Assembly (NCBI RefSeq): GCF_002804125.1
Contig: NZ_CP024966.1
Coordinates: 372,001-436,000 of the forward strand
Direction: 5' to 3'
DNA: 64,000 nt
Origin: Mesoplasma entomophilum
Lineage (GTDB): Bacteria > Bacillota_I > Bacilli_A > Mycoplasmatales > Mycoplasmataceae
In this document: piece by piece, positions 1-48,244 of the stretch
Layout: every line of letters begins with the position of its first letter
How positions within the stretch are numbered: the stretch's first letter is position 1
Notes under the pieces: generated by a model
What the model was told of the DNA's origin: nothing
Databases searched by the model: none
What the model saw: only the letters and a program-made list of their open reading frames with translations
Program-made: the position numbers and the translations under genes

Positions 1-2477
1 AGTACCACCCACATGGTGATACATCAATTTATGATGCAATGGTTCGTATGAGTCAATGATGAAAACTAGGAATGCCTTTAATTGATATGCAAGGTAATAA
101 CGGATCTATTGATGGTGATAGTGCAGCTGCAATGCGTTATACTGAAACTCGTTTAGCAAAAATTAGTGATTTAATGTTAGATGACTTAAATAAAAATACA
201 GTTAAGTTTGCACCTAACTTTGATGATAGTGAAAAAGAACCAACTGTTTTACCAAGTTATTTCCCTAACATTCTAGTTAATGGATCAACAGGAATTGCTG
301 CTGGTTATGCTACAAACATGCCTCCACATAACCTTGGTGAAATTATTGATGCAACTATTAAATTAATTAGAACTCCAAATACTAGAATAGATACTATTTT
401 AGAAATCGTTAAAGGACCAGATTTCCCAACTGGAGGAACTGTTCAAGGTCGTAATGGTATTAAAGATGCATTTACAACAGGAAAAGGTAAAGTTATTGTT
501 AATTCAAAATGACATGAAGAAGATAATAACATCATTATTGATGAAATCCCTTATGAAGTTGTTAAACAAGATTTAGTTAAAAAAATTGGTGATGTTATTG
601 ACGCTAATCCAGGTTTAGGGATCTTAGAAGTAAGAGATGAAACTGATCGAAATGGATTAAGAATAGCAATTGATTTAAGTGATAAAGCTAATTTAGATAC
701 AGTTAGAAAATTTTTATTTAAATCAACTCCATTAAGTATTTCATATAACTATAACAATGTGGCTATTGTTGATTTACAACCTAAACAATTAGGAATTATT
801 GAATTAATTCATGCATATATTGCTCACTATAAAGAAGTATTTACATTTAGAACTCAATTTGATTTAAATAAAGCTGAAAAACGTTTAGAAATTATTTTAG
901 GTTTAATTAAAGCAATGAGTATTTTAGATCAAGTTATCTCAGTAATTAGAAGTTCAACAAATAGAAGTGATGCTATTGAAAACTTAGTTTCAAAATTTAT
1001 ATTCTCTCAACCTCAAGCAGCAGCTATTGTTGATATGAGACTATATCGTTTAACTTCAACTGATGTGGTTAAACTACAAAATGAAAAAGAAGAATTAGAT
1101 GTAAACATTGCTAAGTTAAAAGCTATTTTAAATAGTGAAGAAGTAATGGATAATGAAATTATTAATCGTTTACGAGAAGTTAAAAAACAATTCCAAACTC
1201 CAAGAAGATCAACTGTTGAAGATAGCATTGAAAACTTAGATGTTGAGCAAAAAGAAGTATTAGTTGAACATGAATATAACTTATGAATTTCAAAAGATGG
1301 ATATTTAAAAGCTATTGAATCAAAACTAATTAGTAAAAATGATCCTGCTGTATTTGGTAGAAAACCAAACGATATGTGAATTGCAGCTGGAGAAGTAAGT
1401 AACTTACAACATTTAATCTTAATCACAAATAAAGGAACATACTATTCAATTCCTTTATATAAATTACCAATGAGTAAATGAAGAGACATGGGAGTTCATG
1501 TTAACACTATTGCTACAATGGATCCAAGTGAACATATTGTTAGTGCATTTGTAGTTAAAGATTTTGCTGAAGCTTTACAACAAATCTTAATCACAAGTAA
1601 AAATGGAAACATTAAACGTATACCAGTTAAAGATTTAGAAACAAAAATCTTTACACGTGCATTTAGAATTATGAAATTAGATGCAGCTGATGAAATTGTT
1701 AGTGCTAGTCTAATTACTTCAAAAACTAGAACTTGTGGAATTATTACAAGAAATGGTTATGGGGTAAGATACCATATTGAAGATATTCCTGTTCAAGGAA
1801 CTAATTCAAAAGGAGTTAAAGCAGCTAATCTAAAAGAAGATTACATAGTTGCAGGTTTAGGATTAACAAGTGAAGATACTATTATGTATCTAACTGAAAA
1901 AGATGGAGTTAAAAAATTCAGAAATGAAGATTTACCAATCTATATTAGACCAAAACGTGGAGTAAGAGTATTACCAGAACGTAAACGTGGAACTGAATAC
2001 ATTACATTTGTATTTAACTTTAATGCAAATGAAGAAAACATTATTAAAACAATTGATACTCAAGATATGTATCAAGAAGTTAATGTAAACAAATATCGTC
2101 ATATTGAATTAACTAGTGTAACTGGTGATTTTGATATTAAAGATGTTGCATTTGCTAGTTTAAGTGAAATTAATAAGGTTAAACCAAACGATATGCCCCC
2201 AGGTGCTTTAAATGCTGATGATGATGCTGAAGGATATGTGTCTAAAGAAGAAATTAGAGCACGTCAAGAAGCAAACAAAGGTAAAGTGTCAGCTAAAGTA
2301 GTGGTAAGCAAAAATGTTAAAGAAGAAAGCGAAAAACGTATTCAATCATTAACTGGTGGTTTAAGTGATTTACTAGGAGATATTTCTTCAGTATTAGGAA
2401 CACCAAGTAAACCAAAACCCAAAAAAGAAGTTAAAGATGAATTTCAATTAGATCTAAGTGAACTACTAGAAGAATAA
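1..2477 (+). CDS. parC: DNA topoisomerase IV subunit A (3' part)
   Basis: Catalytic subunit of topoisomerase IV, which decatenates chromosomes with ParE. The reading frame is open from base 3, so the 5' end lies outside the window; about 824 codons remain. The first visible residues are the quinolone-pocket motif [13 protein letters not shown], followed by [18 protein letters not shown], whose Arg-Tyr pair (bases 135-140) is the DNA-cleaving site. The rest is the coiled coil and C-terminal beta-pinwheel region. Several Trp residues are TGA codons, so a standard-code reading breaks the gene into three pieces. Thr sits where most ParC proteins have the Ser80 equivalent, and Asp where Glu84 is usual. 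ParC is preferred over GyrA because of the short C-terminus and GrlA-like sequence, but GyrA cannot be fully excluded without the N-terminus. Confidence 0.93.
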
Positions 2478-2507
2478 AAAAATCAACTTTATAAGTTGAT
2501 TTTTTTA
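2478..2507. terminator. Bidirectional terminator after parC
   Basis: A-run, stem ATCAACTT/AAGTTGAT with a short loop, then a T-run. It directly follows the parC stop codon and overlaps the stop codon of the convergent minus-strand gene, so it can end both transcripts. Confidence 0.85.
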
Positions 2508-3197
2508 TTTAAATCATAATTCAAAAAATTCTTCAGGATTATTTTTCAAAAGTTTAGAATTTTCATTATAAAAATTTCAAAATTTAACTGCTTTTTCAAT
2601 TTCATCATTACAAATTTCAATTCTAACAATCAAATCATTAACTAATAAATTATTTTTTTTATCTTTTAAAGTATCAAGTTCTACTAAATTTTTTTGATAA
2701 ATAATTTGATATTTTTCTAATTGACTATCAGATTCAATTGAAATTGATTTCTCATACTTAATTGTGCTTTTATTGGCTCATCTTCATATTAAACTAAATA
2801 GTCCGTATAAAGAAGAAACTAAAAGTAAAATAAAACTTACTGTATCAAAAACTTGATTTAATGTTATGTTTAAAGAATTTTTAATGCCAAAGTTTGGCAA
2901 AATGAAATAAATTAAACTAATAAATAATATATTAATAAAAAACATTATAAAAAAAGTTAAAAATAAATAAGCTCAAGAATATTTTTCTCTTTTATTTCTT
3001 TCAATTTTAACAAGTCTTTTTAGTAAATCACTTGAATCATTAAACTTTGCTTTTTTACTTAAAATTATTTTGTACTTTTTTAATACTGTTTTTTCATTTC
3101 TATAAACAGATAATACAATTATACAAATAAAAAACGCTATTATTCAAATAAACATTAAAACAACTCAAATGCTTGTTATTCAACTTAGTATATTCAA
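2505..3197 (-). CDS. Membrane protein with coiled-coil tail, unknown function
   Basis: 230 residues, visible only when TGA is read as Trp. I chose a TTG start at 3197 because a strong Shine-Dalgarno sequence (GGGGGAG) lies 7 nt upstream and no ATG fits. The N-terminus has one hydrophobic segment (about residues 5-28). Two more lie in the middle (about 75-98 and 112-135), followed by a charged, probably coiled-coil C-terminal tail of about 85 residues. I recognise no family. It lies downstream of a small open frame with a tetranucleotide repeat and faces parC tail to tail. Cytoplasmic-membrane location is inferred from hydrophobicity only. Confidence 0.7.
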
Positions 3198-3217
3198 AAT
3201 AACACTCCCCCTTTCTG

Positions 3218-3421
3218 TTATTTATATGTAAATAAAATAGTTATTCTTTTTCAAACTAAATATATAGAGTTCAGCAAATGTTTTTTTGTGTTTTCTTTAT
3301 CACCTATATAAAATGGATTTGGATTTGAACTTCATGTTGAAGTTAAATAAATAAATAAATAAATAAATTCGTTATCTATAGCAGCAAAAACTTTGTTAAG
3401 TAGAAGTCTTCTGCAAATCAT
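3218..3421 (-). CDS. Small open frame spanning a tetranucleotide repeat (doubtful gene)
   Basis: 67 codons with TGA as Trp, from an ATG at 3421 to TAA at 3218-3220. The stop lies just upstream of the Shine-Dalgarno of the next gene (TTG start at 3197), which suggests coupling. The frame runs through an (AAAT)n tract, read as a Phe/Ile/Tyr/Leu-rich hydrophobic stretch (about residues 17-26). It then continues into a more ordinary hydrophilic sequence that includes SSNPNPFYIGDKENTKK. No Shine-Dalgarno is visible before the ATG and no family is recognised. It may be a gene remnant, or the open phase of a slippage-prone gene. Confidence 0.3.
3345..3367. repeat. Tetranucleotide microsatellite (AAAT)n
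   Basis: Nearly six perfect AAAT units (23 bp) inside a minus-strand open frame. Gain or loss of one unit changes the reading frame. The 3422-3617 stretch beyond it shows no gene, only a weak stem near 3436-3460. Confidence 0.9.
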
Positions 3422-3617
3422 AAATTATTTACTATTGCTTATTCACTTTCATGTGAGCAATATAGCTGAGCCCTTATTTTATTTTATTTTTAAAATACCA
3501 TTAGATTAAATATTTTATTTAGAATTGTAACAATATTTTTTGTAAATTAGAAGTATATAAAATATAATCTAATATTAATATTTTTTATTAATAAGTTAAA
3601 TATCTATCACATTTATT

Positions 3618-5486
3618 CTAAACTAATTCTCAATCACCTGAGAATACTCTTGTAAAGTCATATTCATTAAGATATAAAAGTCCATGTGAAGTTTGAGATT
3701 TATTTGCTGGTTGACCTCCAAACACTCCTCCTGGATAATTAGGATCATCATAAATTGGATAGCTTAAACCTCTATCATCATTAATTGATCACATAGAAAT
3801 ATAATCAATACCAATTGTGTGACTTCAATTGTAAAAATCTTTAGCGTCTTCTAACGTGAAAACACCTTTTTCAGTATCATTAACACCAATCATTGGAGTT
3901 GAACCCATCATGGCATAAGTTTGAGCATCAGTTATTGTTTGATGAAATTCAGTTTTAATAATTGATTGAATTTGTCGCATTGTCGATTCAGTTGCTTGTT
4001 TAGCTAAATCAAAGTTTGTTTTTCCTTCAGCTATTGCTTTTTCATAAATATCATTACCATAATCCATAACCATAGGATTAAATTTAGGTAAATCATTAAC
4101 ACTTAAACCAACTTTTGCATATTCTTGAATAAATGTTTCAACAACTTGCATTCCTTTATTAGGGCCACTTATTAATCCATCATTTAATACAGCTACAGTT
4201 ACTGAAAAGTCTCATTCTTTATCAGCCTTTTTCATTCCAGCTATTGTTCTAGCTAATAAAGCAGTATCATTTTTATATTTATCATCTTGGGCTCCACCTT
4301 CGATATCAAAGTCTATCTTTTTAACCATTTTTTGACCAACTAAATTAGCCAATTCTTGTTGGTAATCAATAAATGCTTGTTCTAACATCTTTTGTGCTTT
4401 AACTTGATCATCTGGAGCTAATTTTGTTGCTAAAATTCAAGGTAAATTTTTTTCTGGAGCTTCTCCAGCATTATAGCCTCCATAAGAAACTCTTGAATTT
4501 TTAAATAAATCCCTACTTGCTAAGGGTTTTAAAATGTCAGGCAATAGTTTATGTTCAGTATATCATTTATATCCTTCAGTAGTTTTGTCTAAACCAGCAA
4601 ATGATATTGATAATTTATCTTGATTTTTGTTATCTTGATTCGCAAAAGCAAAAGTTAAACCATCTATATTTTTGTTTTGTTGTAGAATATCTTCAACTTT
4701 ATCACCATTGTATAAAGCAGCATCAATATAAGGAACAAATTTTGTCTTACTATTAGTTTTAACTTGTTCTATGTATTTTTCTTTTCTATTTGGATTAGCT
4801 TCTTGTCAATCATAATAATGACTTTTGCCTTTACCTATTGGATTCTCAATATATTTTTCTTCATAAACACTAACTTTAAATTTGACAGGTTCATATCTAC
4901 CAACATTAACAGTAATAATATCTTGACCTTTGTTTCCTAAAGATTTTATTTTTAAAGTTCTTCCTTCAACAGTTACATCAGTAACATTTGATTTTTGAGG
5001 ATAGTTATTTGCATTTCCCACGGAAGGAATATAGGCTTCTGACTTAGCAGTTATTTTTAAGTTTTCATTGTAATTAGTAATATCTAACTCAATTTCTTTT
5101 TCTCATTCTTTTGCTAAGTCTAGTCTCTGATCTTTTATTTTTGAAATTACAACTTGTCCAGTTATTGGTTTAATAAGTGCATTTTTGATAATAAAAGTAT
5201 TAGAATCAATTTTATAGTTTTGTTCAATTGTTACTTTAACAGTAACATCTGTTTGATTCGAATTTCTAGTAGCAATTAATGAAACAACTCCATCATTTTT
5301 TTTTGTAATTTTTTCAAGTTCTTTGTTAACTTCATTTATGTTTTCTAAATTTTTAATTGCGGTTGTTTGATTTGCAATATATTTAACTCTTAAAAAATTT
5401 GATTCTTTAGCGCTACATGCAATTATTGGTAGTGGCGCAGCAGCTGCAATTGTTAAAGAAGATAATATAGCAATAAGTTTTTTCAT
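3618..5486 (-). CDS. Chitinase-like (GH18) surface lipoprotein
   Basis: 622 residues. The lipoprotein leader begins MKKLIAILSS and has its lipobox Cys at position 24, so the protein should be anchored outside the membrane. Residues about 25-225 resemble the beta-rich lipoprotein-associated repeats seen in the third GH18 gene (45420-48086). A glycoside-hydrolase-18-like domain follows from about residue 248 (FVPYIDAALY). It contains KKIDFDIEGG, in which D392, D394 and E396 match the family DxDxE catalytic motif, and later VMDYG and YISMWSINDDRG. The likely role is hydrolysis of chitin or a related beta-1,4-GlcNAc polymer, for example insect-derived. The start has an AAAGGA-type ribosome site. 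A perfect palindrome centred on AACGTT lies about 80 bp upstream. The domain is most like the C-terminal half of the 8577-11957 gene. Substrate is unproven. Confidence 0.85.
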
Positions 5487-5555
5487 TTTTCTTTTTTCCT
5501 TTTCTATTTATTCACTATAGTATGAATTTAGCAAAATTAAAAAATAAAATCAATG

Positions 5556-5577
5556 AAAAATGAAACGTTTCATTTTT
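5556..5577. promoter_or_regulatory. Palindromic operator TGAAACGTTTCA with A/T arms
   Basis: A perfect 22-bp inverted repeat centred on TGAAACGTTTCA, in the divergent intergenic region between the GH18 lipoprotein (minus) and the helicase-nuclease (plus). The same core lies before the GH18 gene at 8577, and a one-base variant occurs twice before the BspA-like gene. The centre and symmetry suit a LacI-family-type repressor; no such regulator is encoded in the window. Confidence 0.7.
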
Positions 5578-5723
5578 TAAATTTATTTTTTTTATTTTAT
5601 ACTTTGTATAAGTTTAAAAAAGATAAAAAATAAAGTTTAAAATATTAAATATTTTTAAAAAATAAAACATTATAAGTGTTAAAATTAAATAATATTATTT
5701 TTTATTATCTTTAAGGAGTTAAT

Positions 5724-8312
5724 ATGTTAAAAGTAAAAGAAAAATTTAATTACTGAGTTAGAGTTGCAAATGATCTTTATAATATTGCAGAACAAAACAA
5801 TATAAGTATGGACTTACAAGAACAATGAGAAGAATCTGATTTTAGTGATGAAGAAAAACACAAAAAAAACCAAGACAAACAAAAAATAAATCCTTATTCA
5901 AATATTGAATACTTTATAAATAAAACTTTATTAAGAAAATATGAATATATAAACAAAGAATCAATTCTTTATTATTTTTTAAATGCAAAGCATAAAGAAT
6001 ATAAAAATTGAAATGAAAAAACGTTTATTTATCCATTCGGAATTAATAATAGCCAAAGAAAAGCAGTTGAAAATGCATTTAAATCTAATATTTCAATAAT
6101 TCAAGGCCCTCCAGGAACAGGTAAAACTCAAACAATTTTAAACATATTAGCAAATATCTTAATGGAAAATAAAACAGTAGCTGTGGTTTCTAATAATAAT
6201 TCAGCAATTGATAATGTAATAGAAAAATTACACTCAAAAGTTAATAGTGAAGGTAAAAAAATAAATGTAATTGATGATATTTGATTTTTAACAAGTTTTT
6301 TAGGTAAAAAAAGTAATAATGAAAAATATTTTTCAAAAGAAAATCAGCAAGAAATCTTAAATACTCAAGAAATTTGAAGAAATACTTTAGAAAACTCTGA
6401 TTATTGAGTTAGTAAAAAAGATTTCGCTAAAAATAAATTCAAAATTGATGAATTAGTTTTTGAGATTGAAGAAGTTCAGAGACTAAATGAAGTTATTCTA
6501 GAAAATAAAAATGAATTAAATAAAGTTTTAAAAGAATTAGAACTACTTGTATTAAACGTTCAACTAAGCATGAAAAATGATAAGAATTTAAAAAAACTTT
6601 CACTTAAAAAGCTTAAGAAACTTCATTTAAATTTAAAAATGTATAGAAAAGAAAAATTTACTTGATGGTTTAAATTTAAAACCCGATTTATATATCAAAT
6701 AAAAAAAGAATTTTTTGAAAGTGATTTTATTGCCGAATTGTATTTTCATATTTTAAACAAAAAGCATGAAGGATTAGAATTAGCAATTAAAAATGATAGT
6801 AAATACTTGAAAAAAATAGGAAAGAATAAAATTGAAGATTTAATAAAATTATCAAAACAAAATTTATTAACACATATTTATAAAAATTTTATGTTAGAAG
6901 ATGAAATAAAATTAACTTCTAGCAATTTTAATACATTTCAAAAGGTTTCTGACTTTCAAAACTTTATTAAAAAAAGACCAATCATACTAAGCACCATCTA
7001 TTCCATAATTAATTCAAAAAATAGTTCAGTTTTATATGATTATTTAATTATTGATGAATCTTCACAAACAGATATGTTAGCTTGTATTGGGGCTATGGCA
7101 TGCGCAAAAAACATAATAGTTGTTGGAGACCTTAAACAATTACCACAGGTTGAGAATAAAATATTTAAAAAATATTTTGAAATGCATAATTTTGAAATTG
7201 AAGATGGTTATAAATATTTTGGAAATAATATTTTAAAATCTTTATTAACAATATATAAAAATAAAGTACCAAATCAACTGCTAAGAGAACATTATAGATG
7301 TCATCCAGGAATCATAGGATTTTGCAACAAAAAGTATTATGATAACAAACTAATCATCATGACAGAAAATAGTAAAAATACAAATCCTTTTGAAACAATT
7401 ATAGGAGAATCATTACATTATAATGACACTTCAAAAACAAGCAAAAAAGAAATTCAAAATATAAAAGAATATTTGGATAAAAATAAAATTGATGAGATTG
7501 GTATTATTAGTCCATTTAGAAATCAAGCAAATTTGTTGGCAAAAACCTTTAGATCTGAAAAAATAATAGCTAACACAATTCATAAATTTCAAGGACAAGA
7601 AAAAGACACAATTTTATTTGCTGTAACAAAAGCTAAAATAAATGGTAGAAAAGATTTTGTTTCTAATCCTAAACTTATTAATGTTGCGGTTTCAAGGGCA
7701 AAAAACAAATTTATATTAGCTTATGCAGGCAATTTAGAACAAACACCTGATAATGATATTAAGGATTTATTAAAATATATAAATTATAATTATCCGGATG
7801 CAATCAAAAACATCGCTAAAAATTCTGAATTTTATATATTATCAAAGGAATTTAATAATGATCTTTTAAAACTTATAGTTGATTATAATTTATCTCATAG
7901 TAATGGCACAAAAGAGCCTAGTGAAATTATTATTCATAATATTTTAGAAGAAATTATTAAAGAAGAAAATTATCAACATTTAGACATAACTTTATTTAAG
8001 AAACTTAGCTTGTTAGTTCCTGATGCAATTGAGTCGAAAGAATTTAATCAAAAAGAATTAAGTTTTTTAAAACATCATTGAGCTCATGTTGATTTTTTAC
8101 TTTATGATAAATTTAGTCATGCCCCTGTTTTAGTTATTGAAGTAGATGGTTTAACATTTCATAAAAAGCAAAAACAAACTTGAAGAGATGAAATAAAAGA
8201 TAAAGCTTTAAAAATGCAAAATATTCCAATAATTAGAATCTCAACAGCAATAACAGAAAATATAAAGTCAAAAATTAAAAATGAGCTTTTAAAAATAAAA
8301 GAAAAAACGTAA
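5724..8312 (+). CDS. SF1 helicase fused to a PD-(D/E)xK-type nuclease domain
   Basis: 862 residues with an AAGGAG site 7 nt before the ATG. The motifs are those of a Dna2/Upf1-like superfamily 1 helicase: Walker A GPPGTGKT (128-135), Walker B DESSQ (444-448), GDLKQLPQ (about 468), REHYRCHP (about 521), HKFQGQEKD (about 620) and INVAVSRAK (about 653). A coiled, Lys/Glu-rich insert separates Walker A from Walker B. After residue 785 comes a short domain with D790, then IEVDG (E806, D808) and a following Lys/Arg-rich helix. This fits a Vsr/DUF2726-like PD-(D/E)xK endonuclease. Helicase plus C-terminal Vsr-like nuclease in one chain recalls the Hhe defence architecture, but the DUF4011 part is absent and the protein is shorter. 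Phage defence is inferred. It stands alone, in an accessory region. Confidence 0.85.
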
Positions 8313-41377: not shown

Positions 41378-42919
41378 ATGAAAAATACTCAAATCTTAAT
41401 TTTAGATTTTGGAAGTCAATATACACAATTATTAGCTAGACGAGTTAGAGAAGCTAATATTTACACAGAAGTTTTACCTTTTGATACATCAATTGAAAAG
41501 ATTAAAGAATATCCTTTATTAAAAGGAATTATTCTTTCTGGTGGACCTTCAAGTGTTTATTTACAAAATGCTTATAAAATTCATCCCGAAATTTTAAATT
41601 TGGATATTGCTATTTTAGGTGTATGTTATGGAATGCAATTGTTAACTCAATATTTTGAAGGGGCTGTTGAATTAGCTGATGAACAAGAATTTGGTAAAGC
41701 TATTATATCAATTGATGATAAATCTAATCTTCTTTTTAAAAATGTTGATGAAAGCTCACAAGTTTGAATGAGTCATGCTGATCACGTAACTAAATTACCA
41801 AAAGATTTTAAACAAATTGCACATTCTAATGCGAGTATTGCTGCTATTTCTCATAATACTAAACCAATTTATGGTATTCAATTCCATGCTGAAGTTACTC
41901 ATTCTCTACAAGGTAAACAAATGTTAGAAAACTTCTTATATGATATAGCAAAATGTAAAAAAGACTGAAATCTTGATGATTTTATTGAACAACAAATTAA
42001 AGAAATTAGAGAAATTGTTCAGGATAAACAAGTTATTTTAGGATTAAGCGGTGGGGTTGATTCATCTGTTGCTGCAGCAATCATTGGTAAAGCAATTGGT
42101 AAACAATTAACTTGTATTTTTGTTGATACAGGTTTATTAAGAAAAAATGAATCTGTTGAGGTTATGAAAGCATATGAAACTAACTTTGACATTAATATTA
42201 AATTAGTTGATGCAAGTGATCTTTTCTTTTCTGAATTAAAAGGAATTAAAGAACCTGAAGCTAAAAGAAAAATTATTGGTAAATGTTTTATAGATGTTTT
42301 CACTGATGCGGCTAGACAATATAAAGATGCTGATTTCTTAGCACAAGGAACTATTTATCCAGATGTAATTGAATCTTCTTCTCATGGAGCTAGTTCTAAA
42401 ACAATTAAATCTCATCACAATGTTGGTGGATTACCAGAAGATTTAAAATTTAAATTAATTGAACCTTTAAGAAACTTATTTAAAGATGAAGTTAGACAAG
42501 TTGGTTTTAAATTAGGGTTACCTGAAGAAATGATTAATCGTCATCCTTTCCCTGGACCTGGGTTAGGAATTAGAGTCATTGAAGAAGTAACTAAAGAAAA
42601 AGTTGAAATTTTACAAGAAGTAGATGCTATTTTTATTAAAAAATTAAGAGAGTGAAATTTATATAATTCAGTTTCACAAGCCTTTGTTACATTATTACCA
42701 GTTAAAACAGTTGGTGTAATGGGTGATAATCGTACTTATGATTATGTTGTTGCTTTAAGAAGTGTTAATACAATTGATTTTATGACAGCAACTAGCACAC
42801 ATCTTCCTTGAGAATTTTTAGATGAAGTAGTAAATGAAATAATAAATAAAGTAGATAATGTTAACCGAGTAGTTTATGATGTTACATCTAAACCTCCAGG
42901 AACAATAGAATGAGAATAA
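41378..42919 (+). CDS. guaA: GMP synthase (glutamine-hydrolysing)
   Basis: 513 residues. I chose the ATG at 41378 (AGAAGGAG upstream), not the longer frame that would run through the riboswitch terminator. The glutamine amidotransferase domain has [10 protein letters not shown] and the catalytic GVCYGMQ, with H/E in QFHAEVTHS. The synthetase domain has the ATP loop LSGGVDSS, and [12 protein letters not shown] and KPPGTIEWE at the end. It turns XMP into GMP. Controlled by the purine riboswitch in its leader; guaB follows directly. Confidence 0.96.
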
Positions 42920-42921
42920 AT

Positions 42922-44050
<1,129 letters not shown>

Positions 44051-44052
<2 letters not shown>

Positions 44053-44090: not shown

Positions 44091-44259
44091 TTAATTAAGA
44101 ATAATCTAGTTTGAAGTCATTAAGTTCACTTAGTTCCTAGTTAGTATTTATAAATTTTAAAGTTAGAAATATTTCATAATATTTGTTTGTTTAAATAATT
44201 TGTTACCTAATTTAATTTTTGAATTTTACACTTTTTTTATTGCAATGTTAAAATTTAGG

Positions 44260-44311: not shown

Positions 44312-44863
44312 ATGGAAAAAGAACAATTTAAAAAAATTTTAGATAATATTGACAAAAAATATAGAGATTTTCAATTTATAGGTTCTTATGAGGAATTGCA
44401 AAAAAATAAAGATTGAATAAAAATTTCTGAAGTTATAGAAAATCAAATAAAACCAAATTTAAAAGATGATAATTTCGAGTTTTCAGACATGATAAATCAA
44501 TACTCTGATGCTAAGTTTGAATATATATTAAATAGAAATAGAAAAACAAACTATATTTCGTGGCATTGATGAGGATTCAGATGACATATTGGCTATGAAG
44601 CATTTGTTGAAATGGTTAATAGTGTGCGTGAAGGCCCTAAATTACCTCCTGGTTCAATACCCGTTACTACAATGATTTCTTTACTAACTACACAAGCTCC
44701 TGTTTTAGCAGCAGCTATTGGCGCTACGATGGGAGTTGCTGCTATTCATATATCACAGGCAGCAATATGTATTTGCTCAAAAGAATTTTGAAATTCAGAT
44801 AAAAATGTGGTTGTTGGATTTTCTTATTTCATAACTCCTTTAGTTAATTGTTATTTAGAATAA
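44312..44863 (+). CDS. Trp-rich hydrophobic protein, bacteriocin-like
   Basis: 183 residues. The first 80 are charged and helical, without a signal peptide. Then comes YISWHWWGFRWHIGYEAFVE, five Trp/aromatic-rich residues ahead of an amphipathic helix. A long Gly/Ala-rich hydrophobic hairpin follows (SLLTTQAPVLAAAIGATMGV and on), and the end reads KNVVVGFSYFITPLVNCYLE. The combination WWG, helix, Gly/Ala hairpin and final GFSYF recalls a group of small hydrophobic, presumed bacteriocin-type polypeptides of Gram-positive bacteria. This is my pattern recognition, not a database match. A small membrane protein gene follows after 15 nt, as an immunity gene would. Trp at TGA makes the core unreadable to standard-code hosts. 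Confidence 0.65.
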
Positions 44864-44878
44864 TAAGAGCCAAGTAAA

Positions 44879-45346
44879 ATGTTTTGAAGTATTTTATATT
44901 TTTTATCATTAATGCCTAGTATTATAGGTTTAATACAAATACATAATTTAGAGATTAAAAAAGATACCAACGATTATAATGATCATGATGAAATTAAAAT
45001 TTATATTGTTTTAGTTTCTATTTTGGATCTTTTCATAACTTTTTGATTAATTTTAAATTTAGCTTTATTGATGGTTATTGTTTTAGATAGTAATTCAAAA
45101 CTACCAAGTCCTGGATTTTATTACTCAATAGTTTTATTAATTATTTTAATTATTTTTAAATTTTTAAATATCTTATTTATTTCAATTAGTAAAACATTTA
45201 AAAATAAATTTAATAATGAAAGCTTATTTAATCAAAAGAGCAAAAAAATAATCTTTAATTTATTATTTCTATTACCTTTAGTCAACGTTATTTGATTATT
45301 TATTATACTTGTACCAATAATAAAAGAAGAAGGAATATGAAAATAA
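44879..45346 (+). CDS. Small polytopic membrane protein, possible immunity partner
   Basis: 155 residues with four predicted membrane segments (about 3-20, 40-70, 78-100, 122-146) and short charged loops. It starts 15 nt behind the Trp-rich protein, so the two share a transcript that ends in the terminator at 45358. No family is recognised. A self-protection role for the upstream gene is inference from layout. It begins with MFW, with only a weak ribosome site (AAGAG). Confidence 0.6.
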
Positions 45347-45357
45347 CTGTTTATATT

Positions 45358-45387
45358 AAAAAAACTCATTTTAAATGAGTTTTTTTA
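45358..45387. terminator. Bidirectional terminator
   Basis: AAAAAAACTCATTT/AAATGAGTTTTTTT perfect stem with almost no loop. It lies between the bacteriocin-like unit and the convergent GH18 gene. Confidence 0.85.
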
Positions 45388-45419: not shown

Positions 45420-48086
45420 TTATTTTACATTTTTTAATTTACCAAAACTTTCATCAAATCATTTACTGTATGATCATCTATATCACATAATTTTTGGCTC
45501 TGTCCCTCCATAAGTATCTGGTATCATACCCTCAAACGCATCAAAAAGAATTGATCATGTCATTAATCCTCTAATTTTAATCCCATCAGAATTTAATAAA
45601 TTATAAGCTTTATTGAAAGCTTCTTTTGAACCTGCTCCTCTTCCTGCTGGTTCATTTGTTGAAGCACCAATAATGAATTTATCTGCTGGTATTTGATAAA
45701 AACCATTTTGATTATTAGGCCTTGAAGTAATGTATTTTGACATTAAATAATAAAATTCACCACGTTTATCAACATTGTCATTTGTAATATATGTGTTTTG
45801 TTGAACACCTGTTTTTGCAGCATCATCACTTGTTTCTACTTGAACACCATCTCCTCAACCATTATAAAATTGGGGATTTATTCAGTCATAATAACCATCA
45901 AGCCCATCTAAAAATTCTTTATAGTTTCTACCTTCAGTGTTTTTTCTAAGGTAAGGAAATTCAGGGGCCATAGTTATAATGAAATCTTTTCCTTCAGATT
46001 TATATTCATCTTTTAATTCTTTAAGAGCTTGAGCTGTTACATTTTTACTTTCTGAACTATTTAAAGAAGCAGATTCTCAGTCTATGTCTAATCCATCAAA
46101 ACCATATTCGTTAATCACACTTTTAATCGCTGCTTTTAATTGTTCTTTTTGATCACTTCTAAATTTCATATGTTCAGCAGTAGCTCCTCCCATTGATATA
46201 AGTACTCTTTTACCTTGAGATTGTAACGCTTTAATTCCTTCTTTTATTGCGACAGGATTATTAGGGTTATAAGTTGGCATTTGATATTCTACATTAGAAT
46301 ATAAAAATGATAAATTAATAACATTATAAGAAGAAGTTAACAAATCTTTATCATTTAATGCAATTTTATTTTCAAAATTTCCTCCTCAATCATAATGATA
46401 TCCAACTAGGGTTTTTACTTCATATTGAACTTCTACACTGCCTTTATATTTGGCTAAATTATTAGATTGAATCGTTGCTAATTCATTTGTTTTATTGATT
46501 ACTTTTAAATCTTTTTCTTGAATTGTTGTAGCTGGGTTAAATTTTAAAATATTTCTGATTATTCCTGAGTCTAAGTTGTCAGATATACCTTTTAAATTCC
46601 TTTCTTTTATTAAAGTGCTTAAATCAACTGCATTTGCTGTATCTATAATATATTCTATTTCAACCGATCCACTATATTTTGTTGGATCAGTTGATTTAAC
46701 TAATGCGTTTGATGTAGTAATTGATTGTGCATCAATTTCTATTGCATTAATATCTATACTTGGATTTTTTGATTTAATTGCTTGTTTAATTGTATCTTCA
46801 TCAGTTGAGTTTAATGTTCCTAAACTAGTTTGTTTTAATACTGAAGCTAGAGGAACAGCTTTTGAAGTATCAAGTTTAAAAATTATGTTTACACTTCCTT
46901 TATATTTGCTTGGATTATTTGATGTAACTGTTGCTGATACTTCAGTTATATTATTAATATCTACGTAATTAACTTCCAAATTAGGATTCAATTTTGCTAA
47001 TTGACTTTTAATAGTTATTTCATCTAATTTATCTAAAGTACCTAAATTTGTATTTATAATTACTGATGCTAAATCAGTAGCTAAAAGATTTTCATCTACT
47101 TTAAAAGTTAAATCAAGATAACCTTCTTTTGGATTGATATAAACATTTTCATCAGTTGAAGTAACTCTAGCTCAACCTCAGCCACTTGAAGAATTAAAAC
47201 CTGCGTCATATATTCTTACATAATTAGAATCTAACTTAGAATTATCTTTTACTAAAGCATTTAATATTATATCAGGATCTGCATTTGGTAAAACAGTTGT
47301 AATATTTTGATTAGTTATAACATTCGCTAAATTAGTTTTTTCTGGTTTTGTTCCATTGATAGTAAATGTAACATTTACAAAACCTGTATATCTTCCAGAT
47401 GATGTTGAATTAACTTTTGCTGATGTTTGAGTTATAGAAGTGATACTAATATCTTTTGATGTTAACTTAGGATTTAATTTAATGACTGCTTGTTGAATTG
47501 TTAGCGCGTTGTTATCAGATAAAATCCCTAAATCTTTTTCAGTGATAACACTACTTAAATTTGGTTTTTTTGCCTGTATTGTAAAAACAACTGTGACTGA
47601 GCCATTATATATAAAATCATCACCTATTATTAATGCTGATGTTGAATCTATTTCTGTAATTTCAAAACCATTAGTATTAATATCTGGATTTTTTGATAAT
47701 ATCGCACTTCGAATTGTACTTTCTGTTTTGCTACTTATAACGCCCAATTCAGTATTTATGAGATTGTCTTCTAAAGCTGGGACAATGTAAAAAGAAACTG
47801 TAACTTCGCCATTATATTTATCCTGACCAATTAATCTTGCAGTTCCTGAACCTTCACTTATATTAATATTTGTTATTTCAAAATCTGATGTAAATAACTT
47901 TGGATTATTTAACAAAACAGCTTGTCTTATTTCATATTCTGTTGATTTATTTATAATCCCTAAATTCTTTTTTTCAATGATTGTTGCAATATTAATTTTT
48001 TTAGTATTAGTACTACATGATACTGTTAAAATTGTTGTTGGTACTATCAATGATATCGTGCCTAATAAACCTAGTAATTTTTTCAA
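45420..48086 (-). CDS. Chitinase (GH18) lipoprotein with tandem N-terminal repeats
   Basis: 888 residues from a TTG start at 48086. AGGAGA lies 6 nt upstream, inside a longer ATG frame (48101), and TTG begins the usual MKKLL-type leader with Cys24. About seven repeats of some 75-80 residues follow, each with the pattern LG...I..A....NP....I.I..I...SA.V.....Y.GSV.V.F.I, matching the mollicute lipoprotein-associated domain. The C-terminal GH18 domain begins near VGYHYDWGG. It has LISMGGATAEHM and the intact catalytic DGLDIDWE (D664, D667, D669, E671), then NPQFYNGW and RGLMTWSILFDAFEG. This is a classical chitinase motif set, more conventional than the two GH18 genes at 3.6-12 kb. No copy of their operator lies upstream. 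Confidence 0.92.
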
Positions 48087-48244
48087 AATATTTCTCCTCA
48101 TTTATTTTATTTACAAAATATTATATTTTATATGAAATTGTTAATAAATAAAGGATAAGTGTGATATGTGAGTTTATTTTTGAGTAAATTTAGAAAGTAA
48201 TTTTATTAGTGTTTAAAAAATGCATTTATTTGAAAATTTAAAAC

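What the first reader, a model, noticed from the sequence alone, without database searches (positions are those of the whole stretch)
44312..45346. Bacteriocin-like protein with a linked small membrane protein in a mollicute
The WHWWGFRW segment, amphipathic helix, Gly/Ala-rich hydrophobic hairpin and final VVVGFSYF segment resemble a group of presumed hydrophobic bacteriocins. The four-helix protein 15 nt downstream is placed like an immunity gene. I know of no described bacteriocin of this kind in wall-less bacteria. An 80-residue charged leader without a signal peptide is unusual and hints at a dedicated export or processing step.
Basis: inference. Interest (0 to 1): 0.66.

Follow-up and report, generated by a model that had tools for sequence, protein, structure and literature searches.

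The report
Bacteriocin-like toxin–immunity pair in Mesoplasma
Two neighbouring genes in a wall-less insect- and plant-surface bacterium look like a membrane-attacking toxin and the membrane protein that protects its owner, belonging or closely related to a toxin family that is in none of the protein-family libraries searched and that also occurs in other wall-less bacteria and in Paenibacillus.

Summary
In detail: window 44312-44863 encodes a 183-aa protein (code 4) with a charged 80-aa leader, a WHWWGFRW segment, a hydrophobic stretch and a C-terminal VVVGFSYF; 15 nt later lies a 155-aa four-TM protein. Neither matches Pfam, NCBIfam, PHROGs or PADLOC convincingly. Comparative work supports toxin plus immunity. 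In three related genomes (two losses) the toxin core is deleted or decayed while the partner stays open. A fourth has only a 5' relic, with a same-anatomy gene (P0003) inserted. P0003 belongs (hhalign E 4e-11) to a family found in 24 Paenibacillaceae loci and more than 20 mollicute genomes, usually beside a small multi-TM gene. In one Paenibacillus relative the domain is the C-terminal tip of an RHS protein with a 4-TM gene behind it; a Spiroplasma-like genome has three copies interleaved with five TM genes; others have ABC transporters alongside. The window's own protein joins the family only weakly (24-residue match; BLASTP 2e-4 to P0003). Best reading: a membrane-acting antibacterial toxin with membrane-bound immunity. 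Activity, export and processing are untested. Kind known, family apparently undescribed.

The parts
44225..44254 (+). promoter-like site (TTTACA-N18-TAAAAT, TG before -10) of the two-gene unit
   Evidence: consensus scan; the stretch from here through the RBS is conserved at the same site in G008, G009, G010. Not above chance by count
44312..44863 (+). P0001, putative membrane-acting toxin, 183 aa (code 4)
   Evidence: relics in G003, G008, G009, G010
44312..44551 (+). leader, residues 1-80, charged, no signal peptide
44552..44860 (+). putative toxin core, residues 81-183: WHWWGFRW, amphipathic segment, hydrophobic stretch 115-157 with AxxxGxxxG, final DKNVVVGFSYF
44879..45346 (+). P0002, putative membrane immunity protein, 155 aa, four TM segments
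   Evidence: intact in G009 and G010 (91-92%) and G003 (36%), decayed in G011
45360..45386 (+). terminator-like AT-rich hairpin followed by T-run
   Evidence: sequence read directly; scan did not list it because the stem is AT-rich

Best explanation
P0001 is most likely an antibacterial toxin whose C-terminal ~100 residues insert into the cytoplasmic membrane of competing (probably related) cells and permeabilise or depolarise it; P0002, translated from the same unit, sits in the producer's membrane and blocks insertion or oligomerisation. Shown: gene pair, its repeated linkage, selective loss of the toxin core, the same anatomy in a wider family, and use of the family domain as the tip of an RHS protein. 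Inferred: toxicity, membrane target, immunity role, and how a protein without a signal peptide leaves the cell (a type-1 ABC exporter, lysis, or non-classical export).
For: (1) Toxin core lost, partner kept: in G009/G010 and G003 only the N- and C-terminal ends of P0001 remain while the P0002 orthologue is open. The same asymmetry is seen in relatives: L299, L301, L305, L296, L292 (Paenibacillaceae) and G034 (stop in core, intact 140-aa TM gene). (2) The same site in G008 holds a same-anatomy gene, P0003, plus a 131-aa TM gene. P0003 matches a profile built without it: hhalign prob 97, E 3.7e-11, none of 114 real decoys near. (3) The family is beside small multi-TM genes in about ten of fourteen mollicute lineages against 5 of 47 background genes in the window. 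(4) In L297/L360 the domain is the C-terminus of an RHS protein (RHS_repeat E 1.9e-65) with a 143-aa 4-TM ORF downstream, the polymorphic-toxin layout of PMC3482391. (5) G029 has three paralogues interleaved with five TM genes. (6) ABC transporters adjoin members in G037 and G003. (7) P0001 to P0003 BLASTP E 2e-4 across the core, with partial leader resemblance. (8) P0001 core beats 114 decoys and 150 shuffles against the family.
Against: P0001's direct match to the family covers only 24 residues (E 4e-4 to 2e-3; prob 16-36), and against the eight mollicute members alone it is not significant (E 0.02). Its terminal motif is NVVVGF rather than GxGV. Selection on P0002 is only weakly purifying (w 0.36-0.58, few changes), so retention could be drift. 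Some subfamilies (Spiroplasma-like g7, G311/G312, G005) have no TM partner. No signal peptide. AlphaFold models without an alignment were uninformative (pLDDT 41 and 38). No activity data.
Confidence: 0.7

Rival explanations
1. The pair is an intracellular toxin-antitoxin or abortive-infection module: P0001 stays inside and attacks the cell's own membrane when P0002 fails or a phage infects.
For: No signal peptide in P0001, P0003 or G053; cytoplasmic EsxX can also depolarise membranes (PMC12744356).
Against: Most relatives have signal-peptide-like N-termini, and one sits on an RHS protein, a secreted-toxin chassis. No PADLOC match.
Confidence: 0.14
2. P0001 and P0002 form a membrane complex with a housekeeping or transport role; losses are neutral.
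For: Weak selection on P0002; absent from several congeners.
Against: Repeated core deletion with partner kept, replacement by P0003 at the same site, RHS-tip use and paralogue arrays are not expected of a housekeeping complex.
Confidence: 0.1
3. P0001 is a secreted or surface effector towards the insect or plant host rather than other bacteria.
For: Insect/plant-surface lifestyle of the genus (PMC6117150).
Against: A linked membrane-bound partner and occurrence in soil Paenibacillus fit self-protection better.
Confidence: 0.05
4. P0001 resembles the family only by convergence (a WWG segment and a hydrophobic stretch) and is an orphan of unrelated function.
For: Direct profile match limited to 24 residues.
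Against: Same chromosomal site as P0003, BLASTP 2e-4 over the core, partial leader resemblance, same partner logic.
Confidence: 0.15

Closest known systems
Glycine-zipper LXG toxins TelE, EsxX and TspA with TipE, ExiCD, TsaI (PMC10434224, PMC12744356)
   Same: C-terminal Gly/Ala-rich hydrophobic toxin segment, membrane depolarisation (there shown), membrane-protein immunity in EsxX and TspA, orphan immunity genes
   Different: No LXG domain or T7SS link; core begins with a Trp-rich WWG segment; organism has no cell wall
RHS and other polymorphic toxins (PMC3482391); Tse5 as an RHS-borne depolarising toxin (PMC12744356)
   Same: One relative (L360) carries the domain as an RHS tip with a membrane gene behind it; arrays resemble polyimmunity loci
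   Different: P0001 is a small stand-alone protein; the only pore-forming tip catalogued there, Tox-WTIP (two TM helices, RxxR and Wx[ST]IP), is confined to proteobacteria and has another signature
Class II bacteriocins with Gly-Gly leaders and small immunity proteins
   Same: Short hydrophobic effector, adjacent small immunity-like gene
   Different: No Gly-Gly anywhere in P0001, long 80-aa leader, multi-TM partner of 155 aa

Membership tests
WWG-GxGV toxin-like family defined in this report (no database name found) | significant full-length profile match of the core | tested here: inconclusive
   P0001: 24 residues, E 4e-4 to 2e-3, above all decoys; P0003 from the same site clearly met, E 3.7e-11
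WWG-GxGV toxin-like family defined in this report (no database name found) | Trp-rich start (WWG/WxxW) at the head of the core | tested here: met
   SWHWWGFRW aligned with TWYEWWGLVW and YWWGVAI
WWG-GxGV toxin-like family defined in this report (no database name found) | GxG[VI] followed by a beta-like hydrophobic end | tested here: not met
   P0001 has DKNVVVGFSYF in that place; no GxG
WWG-GxGV toxin-like family defined in this report (no database name found) | adjacent small multi-TM partner gene | tested here: met
   P0002, 15 nt downstream
WWG-GxGV toxin-like family defined in this report (no database name found) | N-terminal Sec signal peptide (most members) | tested here: not met
   by eye and hydropathy; also lacking in P0003 and G053
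LXG glycine-zipper toxins | N-terminal LXG domain | tested here: not met
   no Pfam match at E up to 10
LXG glycine-zipper toxins | glycine zipper (G/A/S)xxxGxxxG near the C-terminus | tested here: met
   A133xxxG137xxxG141
Class II bacteriocins, double-glycine leader | Gly-Gly cleavage site | tested here: not met
   no Gly-Gly in the sequence
Any antibacterial toxin | demonstrated toxicity neutralised by the partner | not testable with these tools
   needs expression experiments

The most novel reading that the evidence does not exclude
A previously undescribed, horizontally mobile family of membrane-acting toxins (WWG core) with multi-TM immunity proteins serves interbacterial competition across mollicutes, including as stand-alone bacteriocins in near-minimal wall-less cells, and shares its toxin domain with RHS polymorphic toxins of Paenibacillaceae.
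Probability: 0.55. Interest if true: 0.75.

Novelty: new variant of a known kind. Interest (0 to 1): 0.62.

Why it matters
Searches of the held open-access papers for bacteriocins in mollicutes, Mesoplasma and Spiroplasma returned no title or abstract describing such a system. A family of toxin-immunity pairs there would show competition systems kept in near-minimal genomes that lack a cell wall, explain a set of 'hypothetical' membrane genes in M. florum and Spiroplasma, and give a domain to add to the polymorphic-toxin catalogue. M. florum L1, a laboratory chassis, keeps the orphan partner gene and would be a natural protected or unprotected test host.

Tried and rejected
Direct searches with P0001 in genome contigs, plasmids and phages gave nothing; weak hits, apart from the G003 relic and the G008 gene, were taken as chance (those on reading). 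A first motif scan of genome contigs was mis-framed by one base and returned chance hits, but one locus (L140) happened to carry a true member 5 kb away, which opened the family. A probe sequence written from memory found nothing. AlphaFold without an alignment was uninformative, so no fold search was run. PDB matches of the family profile were designed coiled coils and are ignored.

Full report
What is there. Window 44312-45346 holds two co-directional genes read with code 4: P0001 (183 aa) and, 15 nt later, P0002 (155 aa). They lie between guaB (42910-44052) and a GH18-chitinase-like lipoprotein gene on the other strand (45420-48101; both named from their sequence and from knowledge of the families, not tested). 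Neither gene has a convincing match in Pfam, NCBIfam, PHROGs or PADLOC. The genome (847,966 bp, one contig) belongs to a genus that contains a 793,224-bp genome, the size of M. florum L1 (PMC5893858). By size the window's own genome fits M. entomophilum, 848 kb (PMC6117150); that identity is inference.

The gene pair in relatives. P0002 is intact in G010 and G009 (92% and 91%) at the same site and in G003, another genus, at another site (36%); it is decayed in G011. P0001 is intact only in the window's genome among 320 genomes of the order. Relics are real: G003 keeps the N-terminus, residues 56-77 and the last 26 residues (73% identity, tblastn E 8e-9), with the core missing and the frame broken; G009 and G010 keep short pieces of both ends; G008 keeps only the degenerate 5' end (blastn 3e-35). 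G009 and G010 share one event, so there are at least three independent losses, in two of which the partner was kept. P0002 evolves with w 0.36-0.58 on very few changes and has an in-frame 7-codon deletion in G009; this is compatible with, but does not prove, purifying selection.

A replacement at the same site. In G008 the interval between guaB and the chitinase also holds, on the opposite strand, P0003...TWYEWWGLVWRLEMDNEF...(hydrophobic)...NKGNGVLIRF..., which has no usual start codon in frame upstream of the core and is probably broken there, with a divergent 131-aa multi-TM gene. P0001 and P0003 match at BLASTP E 2e-4 over the core, and MAFFT also lines up parts of their leaders.

The wider family. 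A motif scan led by chance to a Paenibacillus secreted protein with a C-terminal YWWG...NNGRGVTLNLH core and a small TM gene downstream; a P. peoriae plasmid has the same pair. A profile of such cores found 24 loci in 19 of 197 related genomes. Typically: signal-peptide-like N-terminus, ~100-aa leader, ~90-aa core at the C-terminus, then 9-80 nt downstream an 80-92-aa three-TM protein. L299, L301, L305, L296 and L292 have a damaged toxin and an open TM gene. L297/L360 carries the core at the end of an RHS protein (RHS_repeat E 1.9e-65) followed by a 143-aa four-TM ORF.

Members in mollicutes. The 16-sequence profile found members in other mollicutes, and a broadened 11-sequence profile matched 37 of 317 genomes at E below 0.01, more than 20 of them at E below 1e-4; the weakest are not trusted. 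Genomic settings: G029 has toxin-TM-TM-toxin-TM-TM-TM-toxin; G047/G048 have a divergent 198-200-aa TM gene (the two related, E 1e-21); G053 a divergent 122-aa four-TM gene; G034 a toxin with a stop in the core and an open 140-aa TM gene; G003, G057, G027, G004 and G037 a TM gene directly downstream, in G037 followed by an ABC ATPase (PF00005 E 8e-25) and another membrane protein; in G003 a 507-aa ABC exporter (PF00664 E 6e-11) is divergent to its intact family member. The Spiroplasma-like g7 genes, G311/G312, G005 and probably G316/G317 have no such partner. In the window, 5 of 47 other genes would score as having such a partner.

Does P0001 belong? P0003 is a secure member (hhalign prob 97, E 3.7e-11, profile built without it). 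P0001 itself scores above 114 real mollicute proteins and 150 shuffles of itself, but only over 24 residues (E 5.6e-4 to 9e-4), is not significant against the eight mollicute members alone (E 0.02), and lacks the GxGV motif. I take it as a divergent relative, about 0.75 likely; what it works like does not depend wholly on this.

How it most likely works. The anatomy (Gly/Ala-rich hydrophobic stretch with an AxxxGxxxG zipper, dedicated multi-TM partner) fits a membrane-inserting toxin with membrane-bound immunity, as shown experimentally for EsxX/ExiCD and TspA/TsaI (PMC12744356) and, with a soluble immunity protein, TelE/TipE (PMC10434224). Those toxins are LXG proteins, which P0001 is not. 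Export is the least supported step: P0001 has neither signal peptide nor Gly-Gly. Structure predictions gave no usable model.

Novelty. Toxin-immunity pairs are a known kind. This family is absent from the libraries searched, and the one pore-forming tip in the 2012 polymorphic-toxin survey, Tox-WTIP, has a different signature and is confined to proteobacteria (PMC3482391). Literature searches for mollicute, Mesoplasma or Spiroplasma bacteriocins returned no title or abstract describing a related system in the held library; absence there is not proof of novelty.

Noticed in passing
L352 (G029:C1:525500-534000) 1280-6122: Spiroplasma-like genome with three family members interleaved with five 98-118-aa TM genes, resembling a polyimmunity array.
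   Followed up: partly
L360 (G680:C1:2018000-2023500) 7-3562: Paenibacillaceae RHS-repeat protein whose C-terminal tip is the same WWG-GxGV domain, followed by a 143-aa four-TM ORF.
   Followed up: yes
L034 3429-4049: At the homologous site in G009 (size of M. florum L1) an extra 206-aa four-TM ORF sits between guaB and the toxin relic, with weak similarity to P0002 (BLASTP E 0.007), possibly a second immunity-like gene.
   Followed up: partly
window 45420-48101 (-); L034 4779-8120: GH18-chitinase-like lipoprotein with tandem ~75-aa repeats whose number differs between species (893 aa here, 1113 aa in G009).
   Followed up: no
L355 (G048) / L354 (G047): Homologous 198-200-aa TM genes encoded divergently from the family member, no Pfam match for the one scanned.
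   Followed up: partly
L313, L314, L316, L334 (G021, G022, G023): Spiroplasma-like subfamily (GNGVGINLIG) with signal-like N-terminus in several copies but no TM partner; function of this branch may differ.
   Followed up: no
L055 (G011:C1:447500-454000): guaA and guaB appear broken in this genome, which by size (845 kb) fits the pseudogene-rich E. melaleucae of PMC6117150.
   Followed up: no
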